A DNA stretch of 64,000 nucleotides from Candidatus Siliceabacter maunaloa (GTDB lineage Bacteria > Actinomycetota > Thermoleophilia > Solirubrobacterales > Solirubrobacteraceae), in NCBI GenBank assembly GCA_024330185.1, contig JANDLV010000001.1, positions 1-64,000 of the forward strand, given 5' to 3'. The notes beneath the pieces are model-generated. The model saw only the letters and a list, made by a program, of their open reading frames with translations, was not told the origin of the DNA and searched no databases. Every line of letters begins with the position of its first letter. The first letter of the stretch is position 1. Shown piece after piece: positions 4,858 to 11,943 of this stretch. The translations under genes and the position numbers were made by a program.

Positions 4858-5312
4858 GGGGTTGCCCTCGTGGCTACGACTTGAGCGATTCGCTCGACAG
4901 CAAGGTGCGGCGGTTCATGCTCCCAAACCCGAACGACCTTCCACCCGTCGGCAGCGAGTCGCGCGTCGGTATCCCGGTCCCGGCTCACGTTCTCTGCGAG
5001 CTTGCGGCGCCAGAAGCTCGCGTTGTTCATGGGCGAGGTGGCATGTTCGGGGCAGCCGTGCCAGAAGCAGCCGTCCACGAACACGGCTACCCGTGCGCGG
5101 GCGAACACGAGATCAACTTCGCGACGGGACCCCGCCAACAACCGCTGATGCAGGCGATAGCGAAGTCCGAGCGCATGAAGGCGCGTCCTGATGCGAAGCT
5201 CGACCGCTGTGTCGCGTTCGCGCTGTGCACGCATACGGGTGCGGACGACCTCATCGGCCGGAACCGGGTCGCGATTCAGCTTTCGATGACGTCCTCGGGG
5301 GTCAGGCTGCAT
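4854..5312 (-). CDS. vsr: very short patch repair endonuclease
   Basis: This 152-residue Vsr nicks next to T:G mismatches that arise when 5-methylcytosine deaminates, protecting sites methylated by the partner methylase. The family pattern is clear: TRMRAQRERDTAVELRIRT, then LHALGLRYRLH, REVDLVFARARVAVFVDGC continuing into FWHGC, and a final WKVVRVWEHE. The family's catalytic Asp falls in EVDLVF, and the zinc-binding Cys/His residues are in GCFWHGCPEH. I chose the ATG at 5312, which overlaps the methylase end by 37 bp. An ATG at 5363 would add unconserved residues, and a later ATG near the MRAQ block would remove conserved ones. The stop overlaps the nuclease start, so the three genes are probably translated as one operon. 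Confidence 0.93.
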   Translation of the reverse strand: MQPDPRGRHRKLNRDPVPADEVVRTRMRAQRERDTAVELRIRTRLHALGLRYRLHQRLLAGSRREVDLVFARARVAVFVDGCFWHGCPEHATSPMNNASFWRRKLAENVSRDRDTDARLAADGWKVVRVWEHEPPHLAVERIAQVVATRATP

Positions 5313-6523
5313 CCCGGAAGCACCATATCCGCGGGCCCGGGACGCTCGGCACCCAGGATCCAATGCACGAGCGCGGCGACCTGATACGAAACCAGCGGAG
5401 GAACTGCGTCACCCACGTGACGGTAGAGGTTGGTGAGGCTTGACGACACGAACTCGTAGTCGTCGGGGAAGCCCTGCAGCAGGGCGAGCTCGCGTACGGT
5501 GCAGAGCCGGTCCTGGTCCGGGTGAGCGTAGCGGCCGTTGCCGATGTGACCGCATTCCCGCTTGATGGTCGCGGCCGGCCTTTCCCATGCGAGCCGCCCG
5601 TAGACGTCAGGGTGACTCCCGAAATCGCGAATCGCGGCGCGCTTCTTCATCGAGGGCGTGAGTAGCTCGTCAGCGTCCGGGTGGTCGATCAGGTCGAACC
5701 ACGAACCGCCGTCACGAGGGATCGCCGCGAGCCGCCGCTGATTGACATCGGACGAGATCCGTGGAGAGACGTGCATCGGATCGTGCGCGTCAGCAACGCC
5801 CGCCGCTATTGGTGGCAAGTGAGCGATGGCGTGCCGAACGTGCTTCGCCTCCTGACGAACTTCGAGCCCCGTCCAGAGGTCCCTCAAGCCGAGAGCCGGA
5901 TGCTCCTCACGCACGGCTAGGACGAGGGCGCGTTCGCGACGTTGTGCAAGGCCGAACTCGGACAGGAAGTGGATATCGGGAACGACCCGATACCGCAGGT
6001 CTCGGAGCGTGGTTCGAAGCGCCTCGAAGTGCCGGGCGAATCGGCCCATGAGTAATTCGCGGGCGTTCTCGATCACGATGACCTCTGGCCCGAAGACGCG
6101 CGCAAACGCTCCGACGCGGCCCACGAGCGAGTTCCGCGTGTCGTCGACGATGTGGTTATGCGCCAGCGTCCGGGAGAATCCCGTGCACGGCGCGCATGCC
6201 GAGAGGACGGCGGGCCGATCCGGTAGTGACATCAGGTCCCGCAACTCCTCAGCCTCAAGCGTTCCCAAGTCGAGCGCGAGGGGTTCGATCCCGATGTTGC
6301 GCCTGAACGAGTCGTTGCAGCCGAGCGTGCCCAGTCCGCTGCTCGGCTTGCCGATCTCGGCGTCAACGGCCCCAACGACCTCAAAGGCCGGATGGCGATG
6401 AAAGCCACAGCTCATTCCGCCGGCCCCGGAGAAGAGGTCAAGGACCGAGTAAGTGGCGCGGGCGTGCCGAGATACCTCGGTGAGGGATGATCGACGCTCA
6501 AGCATGGGCAAGCCGAGGCGCAT
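5276..6523 (-). CDS. DNA (cytosine-5-)-methyltransferase
   Basis: This 415-residue C5 methylase shows the ordered family motifs. Motif I is VLDLFSGAGGMSCG (SAM binding). Motif IV is SACAPCTGFS, with the catalytic Cys after Pro. Motif VI is VIVIENARELL, motif VIII is QRRERALV, motif IX is LALLQGFPDDYEF and motif X is VGDAVPPLVS. The target-recognition region lies between VIII and IX and is short. It is the first gene of a methylase-vsr-nuclease operon and should protect the host from the SmaI-like enzyme; pairing with Vsr fits a 5-methylcytosine product. A TACCTT box at 6532-6537 lies 8 nt before the ATG at 6523, which favours that start over the internal ATG at 6505. Confidence 0.95.
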   Translation of the reverse strand: MRLGLPMLERRSSLTEVSRHARATYSVLDLFSGAGGMSCGFHRHPAFEVVGAVDAEIGKPSSGLGTLGCNDSFRRNIGIEPLALDLGTLEAEELRDLMSLPDRPAVLSACAPCTGFSRTLAHNHIVDDTRNSLVGRVGAFARVFGPEVIVIENARELLMGRFARHFEALRTTLRDLRYRVVPDIHFLSEFGLAQRRERALVLAVREEHPALGLRDLWTGLEVRQEAKHVRHAIAHLPPIAAGVADAHDPMHVSPRISSDVNQRRLAAIPRDGGSWFDLIDHPDADELLTPSMKKRAAIRDFGSHPDVYGRLAWERPAATIKRECGHIGNGRYAHPDQDRLCTVRELALLQGFPDDYEFVSSSLTNLYRHVGDAVPPLVSYQVAALVHWILGAERPGPADMVLPGCSLTPEDVIES

Positions 6524-6682: not shown

Positions 6683-7252
6683 TCAGGCCGCCGGGATGGC
6701 CACCCGCAGGCGGCCGATCATGCGCTCCACCCGCTCGGCGTAGGCCTTGCCGTCGAGGCCCAGGGTCGAGGCGATCTCGGGGCCGGGCGTGCCGTCCAGC
6801 AGCATGCCGAGGATGGGCAGGTCCTCGGGGTCCAGGCGGCGGTTGGCCTCCTCGAGCTGCTCGCGGGTGACCGAGGGCAGCAAGGAGTCGCCCCGGGCCA
6901 CGGAGCGGATCGATTCGTAGAGCTCCTGGGCGGGAGCGCCCTTGTGCACCAGGCCGTCGGCGCCCGCCAGCACGGCGGGGATGGCCAGCGAGCCATCGGC
7001 GTAGGCCGAGTACAGCAGCACGGCCGGGGCGGGCAGCATCCGCTTGAGGCGGCGGCAGATCTGCAGGCCGTCCTCGCCCGGGATGTGGTAGTCGAGCACG
7101 ACCACGTCGGGGTGCGTGCGAGCCAGCAGGGGCTCGAGCTCGGCCGCGTTGGTGGCCGAGCCCAGAGGCACGAGCCCCGGCTCTGCGCGCAGCACGGCAC
7201 TCAGCCCCGCGCGCAGGGCGGGGTGGTCGTCGACGATGACCAGTCGGATCAT
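6683..7252 (-). CDS. NarL-type response regulator
   Basis: This 189-residue regulator has an N-terminal receiver with the acidic pair in VIVDDHPALRAG and the phospho-acceptor Asp in VVVLDYHIPGEDG. The threonine/serine position is in LLYSAYAD and the conserved Lys in DGLVHKGAP. The C-terminal domain (about residues 140-185) sits where a LuxR helix-turn-helix would be, but it is short and divergent (LPILGMLLDGTPGPEIASTL), so DNA binding is likely but not certain. Its start overlaps the stop of the sensor kinase gene (ATGA), so the two are coupled and the kinase is its presumed phospho-donor. The stimulus is not evident. Confidence 0.88.
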   Translation of the reverse strand: MIRLVIVDDHPALRAGLSAVLRAEPGLVPLGSATNAAELEPLLARTHPDVVVLDYHIPGEDGLQICRRLKRMLPAPAVLLYSAYADGSLAIPAVLAGADGLVHKGAPAQELYESIRSVARGDSLLPSVTREQLEEANRRLDPEDLPILGMLLDGTPGPEIASTLGLDGKAYAERVERMIGRLRVAIPAA

Positions 7253-8382
7253 GCGACCTCCTGGGAGACGGGGGTGAGAGGGACCTTCAGCGCGACGACG
7301 GTGCCGCCGCCCTCGGCGTGCTCGACCTCCAGCGTGCCACCGATGGTGGCGGCGCGCTCGCGCATCGAGCGCAGGCCGTTGGAACCGGGGCGCAGCTCGT
7401 CGGGCAGGCCGCAGCCGTCGTCGCGCACGGTGATGTGCAGCGTCTTGCGCGAGCCGCCGAGCTTCACGCTGATGTGCTGCGCCTCGGCGTGGCGCACGGC
7501 GTTGGTCAGCGCCTCGCCGGCGATGCGCGTGGCGTGGGCGGCCACCAGGGGCGGGAGGATCGGCGCGCGGCCCTGGACGCGGATGTCGGCCGGGGTGACG
7601 GCGCCCAGCTCCCGGGCACGCTGGGCGACGATCTCGCCCAGGGGGCGCCCGTCGATCGGGGTGCGCAGCTCGGCCACGCTGGTCTGCATGTCGCCGGTGG
7701 CCGCGCCCAGCTCACCCAGCGCCTGATCGAGCAGCGCGCGGTCGGTGTCCTGCACCCGGTCGCGGACCATCGTGAGGACGAGGTGCGCCGCGTGGACGCG
7801 CTGCTTGGCCGAGTCGTGCAGCTCCCACGCGATGCGCTGGCGCTCGGCCTGCACGGCGAGGCGCTCGGAGCGCTCGCGCTCCTCGCTCAGGCGGTTGAGC
7901 AGCCGCTGGGCGTAGGCCAGCGCGACGGCCACCATGAGCGGGGTGAGCACGCGCGTGGTGACCGTCTCCAGGCGCACGGCGCTGTCGACCGTGTTGGGCT
8001 CCAGCGTGGTGAGCAGGCCGACGACGAAGTAGCTGAGCGAGAAGGCGCCGCCCCAGGCGACGGCCTTGCGGAAGCCCAGCGCGGTGGCGGGCAGGATGAG
8101 CGAGGTGATGGCGAAGAGGTAGAACGGGGAGCGCCAGTTGCCGGCGACCAGGATCAGCCCGAAGCCGGCCACCGCGTCGATCATCCAGGCCGCGGGTGCG
8201 TACTGCAGCGCGGGCAGGCGGGCGAACGCCAAGCAGCTCACCGCGCAGTAGCCCAGGCACAACGACACGAGCAGCGCCGTGTCGGGCGTGTCGGTGGCCA
8301 GGAGCAGGATCGCCGCGACCGTCGCCGCGGCGATCCGCGTGACCAGGAAGAGGTCAAGCCAGCGGTTGGAGTGGTCGGTCAT
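7249..8382 (-). CDS. NarL-partner sensor histidine kinase
   Basis: This 377-residue kinase begins with several hydrophobic segments (about residues 10-165, five or six membrane spans). There is no large extracellular domain, so it probably senses within or near the membrane. The dimerisation helix has the phospho-acceptor His in IAWELHDSAKQRVHAAH, as in HisKA_3 kinases. The ATPase domain follows, with the N-box in AGEALTNAVRHAE, VRDDGCGLPDE, and NGLRSMRERAATIGG. It precedes and overlaps the response regulator gene. Its start lies only about 40 nt from that of the divergently transcribed M42 peptidase, with a palindromic control region between them (8396-8421). The ligand is unknown. Confidence 0.92.
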   Translation of the reverse strand: MTDHSNRWLDLFLVTRIAAATVAAILLLATDTPDTALLVSLCLGYCAVSCLAFARLPALQYAPAAWMIDAVAGFGLILVAGNWRSPFYLFAITSLILPATALGFRKAVAWGGAFSLSYFVVGLLTTLEPNTVDSAVRLETVTTRVLTPLMVAVALAYAQRLLNRLSEERERSERLAVQAERQRIAWELHDSAKQRVHAAHLVLTMVRDRVQDTDRALLDQALGELGAATGDMQTSVAELRTPIDGRPLGEIVAQRARELGAVTPADIRVQGRAPILPPLVAAHATRIAGEALTNAVRHAEAQHISVKLGGSRKTLHITVRDDGCGLPDELRPGSNGLRSMRERAATIGGTLEVEHAEGGGTVVALKVPLTPVSQEVA

Positions 8383-8395
8383 GGCGAGCCTTGAG

Positions 8396-8421
8396 CCTCG
8401 CAGGTAGCGTACGCTGCGAGG
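8396..8421. promoter_or_regulatory. inverted repeat with overlapping divergent -10 boxes
   Basis: CCTCGCAG (8396-8403) and CTGCGAGG (8414-8421) are perfect 8-bp arms around a 10-nt spacer. The centre contains the self-complementary AGCGTACGCT (8406-8415), so each strand presents a TACGCT hexamer suitable as a -10 box. The forward box sits 6 nt before the proposed ATC start of the peptidase. The reverse box lies about 23 nt before the kinase ATG. The symmetry suggests a dimeric regulator that could silence both directions, possibly the linked response regulator. That link is inference. Confidence 0.55.
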
Positions 8422-9486
8422 ATCGCCGCTCCGGAGGTCCTCCAGCGCCTGCTCACCGCCGCGGGGCCCTCGGGCCACGAGGGCGCGCCCGCCCTCGTGT
8501 GGCGCGAGGCGGCTGCCGCGTTCGCTGTGGTCGAGGGCGACCTGATGGGCTCCTCGACCGCACGGGTGGCGGGAACGCAGACCGACCCGCCCGGGCCGAC
8601 TCTCGCGATCATCGGCCACATCGACGAGATCGGCCTGATCGTCACCAACGTCGACGACAAGGGCTTCCTCGTCTTCGCCGGGATCGGCGGCTGGGACCCG
8701 CAGATCCTCGTCGGCCAGCGCGTCGAGGTGCTCACCGCCGGCGGGCCGGTGGCCGGGGTCATCGGCAAGAAGCCGATCCACCTGTTGCGCGAGGAGGAGC
8801 GAAAGAAGGTCGCCGAGCTGCGCGACCTGCACATCGACGTCGGCGCGGCGAGCGCCGAGGAGGCCGGCGAGGCCGTACGGGTGGGCGACGTCGCGGTCCT
8901 GGCCGGGGAGCCGCTCGAGCTGCACGGCGGGCGGGTGGCCTCGCGCGCGCTGGACAACCGCCTCGGAGCGTTCATCGCCCTGGAGGCCGCGCGTCTGGTC
9001 GCGCGTGACGGTGGCGCCCCCGGCGACGTGGTCGCGGTGGCCGGGGTGCAGGAGGAGGTCACCATGGCCGGCGCGCGCACGACCGCCTACGAGCTGCAGC
9101 CTGACGCGGCGATCGTCGTGGACGTCACGCACGCCTCCGACGCGCCGGGCATCGACGCGCGCGAGGTCGGCGAGCATCCGCTGGGCGGCGGCGCGGTGGT
9201 GGCCCGCGGGGCGACGCTGCACCCGGCCGTGAGCGGGCTGCTGCTCGACGTGGCGCGCGAGGACGGGATCGCCCACACCGTGGAGGCGACGACCGGCCGC
9301 ACGGGGACCGACGCCGACGCCGTCCACCTGACGCGCGGCGGGATTCCCACCGGCATGGTCTCGATCCCGCTGCGCTACATGCACTCGCCCGTCGAGGTGG
9401 TGCAGCTCTCGGACATCGAGGCCTGCGCGCAGCTCGTGGCCGCCTTTGCGCGGCGGCTGACGGCGGACGTCGCCTTCGCGCGGTGA
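8422..9486 (+). CDS. M42 family metallopeptidase, probable ATC start
   Basis: This M42 (glutamyl aminopeptidase/endoglucanase-like) enzyme is a cytosolic di-metal aminopeptidase. Expected ligands and catalytic residues are all present: His and Asp in IIGHIDEIG, Asp in RALDNRLG, the Glu pair in VQEEVT, Asp in VVDVTHA and His in RYMHSPVE. The conserved N-terminus APEVLQRLLTAAGPSGHEG is encoded from 8425, but no ATG, GTG or TTG lies between the upstream in-frame stop (8392-8394) and the GTG at 8497, which would cut it off. An ATC at 8422 lies 6 nt after a TACGCT box, so I propose initiation there on a leaderless mRNA (354 residues, normal family length). A sequencing error is the alternative. 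The stop overlaps the HAD gene. Confidence 0.87.
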   Translation: MAAPEVLQRLLTAAGPSGHEGAPALVWREAAAAFAVVEGDLMGSSTARVAGTQTDPPGPTLAIIGHIDEIGLIVTNVDDKGFLVFAGIGGWDPQILVGQRVEVLTAGGPVAGVIGKKPIHLLREEERKKVAELRDLHIDVGAASAEEAGEAVRVGDVAVLAGEPLELHGGRVASRALDNRLGAFIALEAARLVARDGGAPGDVVAVAGVQEEVTMAGARTTAYELQPDAAIVVDVTHASDAPGIDAREVGEHPLGGGAVVARGATLHPAVSGLLLDVAREDGIAHTVEATTGRTGTDADAVHLTRGGIPTGMVSIPLRYMHSPVEVVQLSDIEACAQLVAAFARRLTADVAFAR

Positions 9487-10178: not shown

Positions 10179-10257
10179 CAACAGCAGCAGCCGGACCGAT
10201 AAACGAACGTCTGTTCCCCCGTTCCGTCCGGGCTGGACGTTAGCTTTCGCGCGTGTG

Positions 10258-11943
10258 ATGTCCCGCTTGGAAGATTCCGCGGTTGCGCGCAAGACTCGAG
10301 GTGCCTTCTTCACGCCGCCGGCCATCGCGGACTTCTTGGCGCGCTGGGCCATCCGCTCACTCGACGCTCGCGTGCTTGATCCCACCTGCGGCGAGGCGGT
10401 TTTTCTGCTGGCTGCCGCGGAGCGGCTGCGCCGTCTCGGGGTGACTCCCGAGGCGATCGCCGGACAGCTCACCGGCGTAGATCTCCACCAGCCGTCACTC
10501 GACGCGTCGCGCGCGCTTCTGCGTGACGAAGGCGCAGGCTCCCGGTTCGTGAGGTCGGACTTCTTCGATCTGCCGACACCGGCGCAGATCGGGGACCGTA
10601 TCGGCTGGCAGGACGCCGTCATCGGCAATCCGCCTTTCGTGCGCTACCAGGAGCACCGCGGCGATACCCGTCGGCGGTCGGCTACTGCCGCGCTCGCCCA
10701 GGGCGTCCGGCTGTCCGGGATGGCTTCATCCTGGGCCGCCAGCCTGGTGCACGCCTCGGCCTTCCTGAATCCGACCGGCCGCTTGGCCATGGTGCTGCCG
10801 GCGGAACTGCTGACCGTGCAGTACGCCGAGCCCGTTCGCCGGTGGCTCAGGCGGCGCTTCGCAGTCGTCAACCTCGTCATGTTCGAGCGGCTGCAGTTCC
10901 GCGACGCCGAGGAGCACGTCGTGCTCCTCGTGGCGCACGGTACGGGCCCGTGCGACTCGTTCTGCCTCTACCACGTCGATGGCGCGGACGATCTCGTCCA
11001 GATCCATCCGATGGATCCGGTGGGAGCCAATCCGGCGGCCGAGGGCAAGTGGAGCGACCTGACGTTGCCGTTGGACACCCGCCAGCTCTTCAAGAGCGTG
11101 GCCGGCGAGCGGATGGCGCGCCTTGACAGCTACGGCACCCCCGAGTTGGGGACGGTCACCGGCGCCAACGACTTCTTCGCGATCTCCGAGGTGACTCGCC
11201 GCAAGTACGGTCTGACCAACGAGCACGTCAAGCCTCTGAGTCCTCCGGGAACACGCCACCTGAAGGGGCTGAGCTTCACGAGGGCTCAGTGGGAGGAGCT
11301 GAAGCTGGCTGGCGAGCGCGTCTGGCTGCTGCACCCCGAGAAGACCGCCAGGACGAAGGGGCTCAGCGAGTATCTCAAGCTCGGCGAGGAGCGTGGAGTC
11401 CCCGGCGCCTACAAGTGCCAGGTCCGGGAGCCTTGGTGGCGTCCGCCGGCGGTGTCGGTACCGGATCTCTTCTTCACCTACATGTCGCACCGCTATCCGC
11501 GGATGGTGACCAACACCTCTGGCGCCACGCTCGTCAATTCGATGCATGGCATCCGTCTGCGCGGAGACATTCCACGCGAAGCACGCGCTGCGCTGCCACT
11601 GCTTGGTCTCAACTCGGCCACCATGCTCGGGGCCGAGGTGCTGGGCCGGGCGTACGGGGGCGGCATCCTCAAGATGGAGCCGACTGAAGCCGCCAGTCTT
11701 CCCGTCCCCACGACCGAAGCGCTATTGAGTGCGTGGAAGGTGCTCGCTGCGCAGCGCCTCAACCTCGACGCCGCACTTCAGCGGGGCGAGTGGTGGACGG
11801 TCGTGGCGGAGGTCGATCGCGTGTTGCTGAAGAACGTGATGGGCTTGAGCGTCGATCAGGTTGGCGCGATCCGCGACGCGGCGGCCGTGCTTCGTGTCCG
11901 TCGTACCAGGCAGACTGAGCTCAATGGCTCAGCCAAAGCCTGA
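10258..11943 (+). CDS. DNA adenine-N6 methyltransferase (type II system 2)
   Basis: This 561-residue methylase has RKTRGAFFTPPAIADFLARW, then SAM motif I in LDPTCGEAVFL, and catalytic motif IV in VIGNPPFVRYQEH. The NPPF signature and order fit gamma-class N6-adenine methylases of the TaqI/Eco57I kind. The C-terminal half (about residues 290-550) should carry target recognition; it has the HLKGLSFTRAQWEEL and TNTSGATLVNSMHGIRLRG blocks seen in related enzymes. A TAGCTT box at 10241-10246 precedes adjacent GTG (10255) and ATG (10258) starts. The stop overlaps the next gene, a putative nuclease. It presumably protects the chromosome against that nuclease; the site is unknown. Confidence 0.9.
   Translation: MSRLEDSAVARKTRGAFFTPPAIADFLARWAIRSLDARVLDPTCGEAVFLLAAAERLRRLGVTPEAIAGQLTGVDLHQPSLDASRALLRDEGAGSRFVRSDFFDLPTPAQIGDRIGWQDAVIGNPPFVRYQEHRGDTRRRSATAALAQGVRLSGMASSWAASLVHASAFLNPTGRLAMVLPAELLTVQYAEPVRRWLRRRFAVVNLVMFERLQFRDAEEHVVLLVAHGTGPCDSFCLYHVDGADDLVQIHPMDPVGANPAAEGKWSDLTLPLDTRQLFKSVAGERMARLDSYGTPELGTVTGANDFFAISEVTRRKYGLTNEHVKPLSPPGTRHLKGLSFTRAQWEELKLAGERVWLLHPEKTARTKGLSEYLKLGEERGVPGAYKCQVREPWWRPPAVSVPDLFFTYMSHRYPRMVTNTSGATLVNSMHGIRLRGDIPREARAALPLLGLNSATMLGAEVLGRAYGGGILKMEPTEAASLPVPTTEALLSAWKVLAAQRLNLDAALQRGEWWTVVAEVDRVLLKNVMGLSVDQVGAIRDAAAVLRVRRTRQTELNGSAKA

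What the first reader, a model, noticed from the sequence alone, without database searches (positions are those of the whole stretch)
8404..8510. M42 peptidase appears to start at ATC on a leaderless transcript
The conserved N-terminus (APEVLQRLLTAAGPSGHEG) is encoded from 8425 but there is no ATG, GTG or TTG between the preceding in-frame stop (8392-8394) and a GTG at 8497, which would delete it. A TACGCT box at 8410-8415 is followed after 6 nt by an in-frame ATC at 8422, the same spacing as many genes here. Non-canonical AUC initiation on a leaderless mRNA would be unusual.
Basis: partly seen in the sequence, partly recalled or inferred. Interest (0 to 1): 0.62.

Follow-up and report, generated by a model that had tools for sequence, protein, structure and literature searches.

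The report
Lost start codon in peptidase gene
A conserved aminopeptidase gene in a draft soil-bacterium-type genome has ATC exactly where 77 relatives have ATG, GTG or TTG; this most likely reflects a single-base loss of its start codon (a real mutation or an assembly error) rather than a new way of starting protein synthesis.

Summary
The M42 aminopeptidase frame (8395-9486) has no ATG, GTG or TTG between its upstream stop (8392-8394) and GTG 8497, and a TACGCT box (8410-8415) ends 6 nt before ATC 8422. Among 93 distinct Solirubrobacteraceae orthologues, 77 have ATG (58), GTG (17) or TTG (2) at exactly that codon, 68 of them with TAnnnT 4-12 nt upstream; the other 16 have shifted N-termini with canonical starts nearby. 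ATC 8422 is therefore the ancestral leaderless start position, altered.

In 2.07 Mb of this genome, TAnnnT 6-10 nt upstream is strongly enriched before ATG (211 vs 15.5) and GTG (123 vs 19.5) but not before ATC (14 vs 23), CTG or TTG. This is the only leaderless ATC found without a canonical alternative. In M. smegmatis only ATG or GTG initiates on leaderless mRNA, and ATC was the negative control (PMC4633059). The protein is otherwise intact and normally constrained, so the change is recent, erroneous, or tolerated.

Best reading: start-codon substitution with strongly reduced translation (0.45). Rivals: consensus error in the draft genome (0.25), functional AUC initiation (0.22). No second sequence of the species was available to separate them.

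The parts
8422..9486 (+). M42 aminopeptidase gene, read from ATC 8422 to TGA 9484-9486
   Evidence: PF05343 285 bits; PDB M42 enzymes E 2.5e-62; frame open, metal-site motifs present
8422..8424 (+). ATC at the ancestral start-codon position
   Evidence: 77 of 93 distinct orthologues have ATG/GTG/TTG at the aligned codon, none ATC
8410..8415 (+). TACGCT, probable -10 box of a leaderless promoter, 6 nt before ATC
   Evidence: sequence; spacing matches this genome's leaderless genes and orthologues
8405..8410 (+). TAGCGT, overlapping alternative TAnnnT, 11 nt before ATC
   Evidence: sequence
8392..8394 (+). TGA, in-frame stop upstream of the gene
8497..8499 (+). GTG, first canonical start codon in frame; would remove 25 conserved residues
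   Evidence: it encodes a Val shared with the same-genus orthologue
8386..8431 (.). imperfect inverted repeat (arms 8386-8403 and 8414-8431, 78%), perfect 8-bp core CCTCGCAG/CTGCGAGG; possible operator or two-way promoter
   Evidence: single copy in the genome
9483..10178 (+). HAD-like hydrolase, GTG start overlapping the M42 stop (GTGA); probably same operon
   Evidence: PF12710/PF00702; M42-HAD pair kept in G001 and G005
7249..8382 (-). divergent histidine kinase, ATG at 8382-8380
   Evidence: PF02518, PF07730
6683..7252 (-). response regulator following the histidine kinase
   Evidence: PF00072

Best explanation
ATC 8422 is the ancestral start codon of a leaderless M42 aminopeptidase gene after a substitution (most simply ATG to ATC). 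Transcription probably still starts at or next to A8422 from the TACGCT promoter. The mRNA then begins with AUC, which leaderless initiation reads very poorly, so the peptidase is made at a very low level or not at all, and the overlapping HAD gene may lose coupled translation too. Shown: position homology, promoter layout, intact frame. Inferred: transcription start, that the base is real, and loss of translation.
For: 77 of 93 distinct orthologues have a canonical start at exactly this codon, none ATC; the same-genus genome has TAGGCT-CCCGGC-ATG. ATC is not enriched behind leaderless promoters in 2.07 Mb of this genome, and this is the only such case without a canonical start nearby. In M. 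smegmatis only ATG or GTG initiates on leaderless mRNA and ATC is the negative control (PMC4633059). Start-codon substitutions that lower expression are known: an E. coli O104:H4 isolate has rpoS ATG>ATA with reduced RpoS (abstract of PMC12864459).
Against: The protein is under normal constraint and fully intact (NG86 dN 0.18, dS 0.47 against G001; 2 departures from 81 near-invariant columns; no faster than G001), so the loss would have to be recent. The base itself has not been verified in reads or in another strain.
Confidence: 0.45

Rival explanations
1. Consensus base error in the draft genome: the organism has ATG (or GTG) at 8422 and the gene is an ordinary leaderless gene.
For: The genome is a 120-contig draft. 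Only this one sequence has ATC, and everything else about gene and promoter is normal. A strong inverted repeat ends directly before ATC, a setting in which short-read errors are known to be commoner (own knowledge).
Against: Consensus errors at a given base are rare in ordinary short-read assemblies (own knowledge). No neighbouring frameshift or stop was seen in this gene.
Confidence: 0.25
2. Functional non-canonical initiation: 70S ribosomes start on the 5'-terminal AUC with initiator tRNA and make enough peptidase for selection to keep the gene.
For: Correct leaderless spacing and exact homologous position; full constraint on the protein, including the 25 codons before GTG 8497. A second ATC candidate, Shine-Dalgarno led, exists at C44:18937. 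Unusual initiation codons were reported in Deinococcus deserti (title seen in the references of PMC3305630).
Against: No enrichment of ATC at leaderless positions; no orthologue shares it; direct tests in M. smegmatis found only ATG/GTG active on leaderless mRNA (PMC4633059); in E. coli even GUG, UUG and CUG work poorly there (PMC9031893).
Confidence: 0.22
3. Translation starts at GTG 8497 and makes a shortened peptidase.
For: GTG 8497 is the first canonical start in frame.
Against: It removes the LLTAAGPSGHE segment conserved in relatives and aligned near the N-termini of PDB M42 enzymes. The codon encodes a Val shared with the same-genus orthologue. Direct reading shows no Shine-Dalgarno or TAnnnT box before it; a 10-bp inverted repeat (8476-8485/8490-8499) reaches it instead.
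Confidence: 0.06

Closest known systems
Leaderless genes of Actinobacteria (TAnnnT about 12 nt upstream of the start codon; PMC3160421, PMC4633059)
   Same: TAnnnT box 6 nt before the start position, no Shine-Dalgarno at a usable distance, same layout in orthologues
   Different: the first codon is ATC instead of ATG or GTG
Start-codon substitution alleles (for example rpoS ATG>ATA in an E. coli O104:H4 isolate, PMC12864459)
   Same: substitution in the start codon of an otherwise intact gene
   Different: leaderless mRNA here; effect on expression and presence in the living population unproven
Non-AUG (AUU/AUC) initiation in bacteria, such as infC AUU in E. coli (own knowledge) and ATC/ATT with a Shine-Dalgarno in M. 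smegmatis reporters (PMC4633059)
   Same: AUN codon at an authentic start position
   Different: those have a Shine-Dalgarno or special context; this one is leaderless, unique to one genome, and unproven. infC of this genome has an in-frame GTG before the matched domain and needs no non-canonical start
M42 (tetrahedral) aminopeptidases such as PDB 5ds0 and 1y0r
   Same: family, metal-site motifs, length, N-terminal segment
   Different: nothing notable in the protein itself

Membership tests
Leaderless genes (TAnnnT promoter type) | TAnnnT about 6-10 nt upstream of the start position | tested here: met
   TACGCT 6 nt before ATC; genome-wide enrichment at this spacing; 68 of 77 orthologues
Leaderless genes (TAnnnT promoter type) | ATG or GTG as first codon | tested here: not met
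   ATC 8422-8424
Leaderless genes (TAnnnT promoter type) | mRNA 5' end at or within a few nt of the first codon | not testable with these tools
   needs dRNA-seq
Genes initiated at a non-canonical AUC codon | codon at the homologous start position with no canonical alternative | tested here: met
Genes initiated at a non-canonical AUC codon | non-canonical codon kept in relatives or recurrent in the genome | tested here: not met
   0 of 93 orthologues; no leaderless ATC enrichment; one further SD-led candidate only
Genes initiated at a non-canonical AUC codon | N-terminal peptide or reporter activity | not testable with these tools
   needs proteomics or a reporter
Old pseudogene | relaxed constraint or further lesions | tested here: not met
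   intact frame, dN/dS about 0.38 against G001, no acceleration
M42 aminopeptidase | PF05343 match and conserved metal-site motifs (GHxDE, LDNR, QEE, D before THA, HSP) | tested here: met

The most novel reading that the evidence does not exclude
The gene is translated at a useful level from a 5'-terminal AUC on a leaderless mRNA in a Solirubrobacteraceae bacterium, breaking the ATG/GTG-only rule measured for actinobacterial leaderless initiation; the SD-led ATC candidate at C44:18937 would then hint at a relaxed start-codon check in this organism.
Probability: 0.15. Interest if true: 0.6.

Novelty: new member of a known kind. Interest (0 to 1): 0.25.

Why it matters
If AUC did initiate here it would contradict the requirement for ATG or GTG on leaderless mRNAs, and it would be simple to test. 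As it stands, the case shows how one base at a leaderless start can hide a conserved gene from annotation. The survey also extends to a Solirubrobacteraceae genome the rule that leaderless genes use ATG or GTG and practically never TTG.

Tried and rejected
Systematic ATC use at leaderless starts: not supported by the scans; the other ATC hits with a TAnnnT box had ATG/GTG close by. A start upstream of ATC: no canonical codon before the TGA, and relatives start at this codon. A Shine-Dalgarno start: GAGG 8418-8421 abuts ATC and no start codon lies 5-9 nt further on. Long-standing pseudogene: not supported by constraint and relative-rate checks. Copies of the inverted repeat elsewhere in the genome: none. 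Templated correction of the quasi-palindrome: C8424 can pair with G8393 in the imperfect repeat, but A8422/G8395 stays mismatched, so this is not argued. Folding of the first 60 nt of the mRNA is no stronger than in shuffles. Papers on all-64-codon initiation in E. coli and on D. deserti non-canonical starts were not held.

Full report
What is there. The window lies on contig 1 of a 3.79-Mb, 120-contig draft genome, 95% complete. Its closest named relatives are Solirubrobacteraceae genomes, nearly all metagenome-assembled; that the window's own genome is also metagenome-assembled is inferred. The frame 8395-9486 encodes an M42 aminopeptidase (PF05343, 285 bits; PDB M42 enzymes to E 2.5e-62). 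The metal-site motifs are present. The frame is bounded by TGA 8392-8394 and its first ATG/GTG/TTG is GTG 8497. TACGCT (8410-8415) ends 6 nt before ATC 8422.

Homologous start. Orthologues were found in 107 of 121 genomes searched in the family, the window's own included; loci were taken for the best-scoring ones and from public contigs. I read the codon aligned with ATC 8422. In 93 distinct sequences it is ATG (58), GTG (17) or TTG (2). The other 16 have N-termini extended or shifted, with canonical starts of their own nearby. None has ATC. Of the 77 with a start at this codon, 68 have TAnnnT 4-12 nt upstream, mostly 6-9. The only other genome of the genus that is held has TAGGCT-CCCGGC-ATG. 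ATC 8422 therefore sits where the ancestor's leaderless start codon was.

Is ATC used elsewhere in this genome? On 2.07 Mb (55% of the genome) I scored coding onsets and counted TAnnnT 6-10 nt upstream by codon, with boxes 21-40 nt upstream as control. ATG 211 vs 15.5; GTG 123 vs 19.5; TTG 0 vs 3.0; CTG 10 vs 28.5; ATC 14 vs 23; ATT 1 vs 1.2. Leaderless starts here are ATG or GTG. With no canonical start nearby, the M42 gene is the single ATC case. With a Shine-Dalgarno, one further convincing ATC candidate appeared, a peptide-binding-type protein with GGAGG-N5-ATC at C44:18937. It has no close orthologue with which to test its start. The other 45% of the genome was not read.

Constraint. Against G001, NG86 dN is 0.18 and dS 0.47. 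The protein shares on average 8 more residues with 108 other sequences than the G001 protein does, and departs from 2 of 81 near-invariant columns, which is ordinary. The M42-HAD pair is kept in G001 and G005, and here the HAD GTG overlaps the M42 stop (GTGA). There is no sign of old decay.

What the literature allows. In M. smegmatis a library of all 64 codons showed that ATG or GTG at the 5' end is necessary for leaderless translation. ATC served as the negative control in that study; with a Shine-Dalgarno it persisted at 0.2% of reads, low but above background (PMC4633059). In E. [quoted passage not shown] TAnnnT about 12 nt upstream marks leaderless genes, on average 19% of genes in Actinobacteria (PMC3160421). 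Non-canonical starts in Deinococcus deserti were reported by proteomics, but only the title could be seen here.

Reading. The simplest account is one substitution in the start codon of a leaderless gene. If the base is real, an AUC-headed leaderless mRNA should be translated poorly, so the allele is probably a recent loss or strong reduction of function. If the base is a draft-genome error, the gene is ordinary. Working AUC initiation is not excluded, because the protein looks fully constrained, but it has little positive support beyond that. No reads, second strain, transcript ends or N-terminal peptides were available, so these three cannot be separated here. The confidences given are judgements, not computed values.

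Surroundings. A divergent histidine kinase (ATG 8382-8380) and its response regulator share the 39-nt interval. The interval holds an imperfect inverted repeat with 18-nt arms and a perfect 8-bp core that covers the -10 box and reaches past ATC. It is unique in the genome and may be an operator or a two-way promoter (inference). The upstream neighbour differs between relatives: an aconitase-like gene in G005 and a PIN-like gene in G001, so this flank is variable; the assignments of these two neighbours are from reading their sequences, not from a profile search.

Noticed in passing
G000:C44:18937-18939 (locus L144): Second ATC start candidate, this one with a Shine-Dalgarno (GGAGG-CCACC-ATC) in front of a signal-peptide-like N-terminus of a peptide-binding-type protein; the next canonical codon is a GTG inside the signal peptide. 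No close orthologue to test it.
   Followed up: partly
G000:C44:5199-5202 and C44:6633-6636 (locus L144): Two genes (one with a GIGGGGDVVGAL N-terminus, one PIN-toxin-like) have no canonical start near the coding onset but a CTG overlapping the upstream TGA (CTGA), as if CTG were used by translational coupling.
   Followed up: no
G000, 2.07 Mb sampled: Leaderless promoters (TAnnnT 6-10 nt upstream) precede ATG and GTG but never TTG (0 of 155 TTG onsets, 3.0 expected), matching the ATG/GTG rule found in mycobacteria.
   Followed up: yes
window 8386-8431: Imperfect 18-nt-arm inverted repeat, with the 10-bp palindrome AGCGTACGCT at 8406-8415 that places TACGCT on both strands, between the divergent kinase and peptidase genes; possible shared operator or two-way promoter.
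   Followed up: partly
window 5276-6523 (-) and 10180-11943 (+): The M42-HAD and kinase-regulator genes are flanked by two DNA methyltransferase genes, a C-5 cytosine methylase and an Eco57I-type N6 methylase, suggesting a variable, restriction-modification-rich locus.
   Followed up: no
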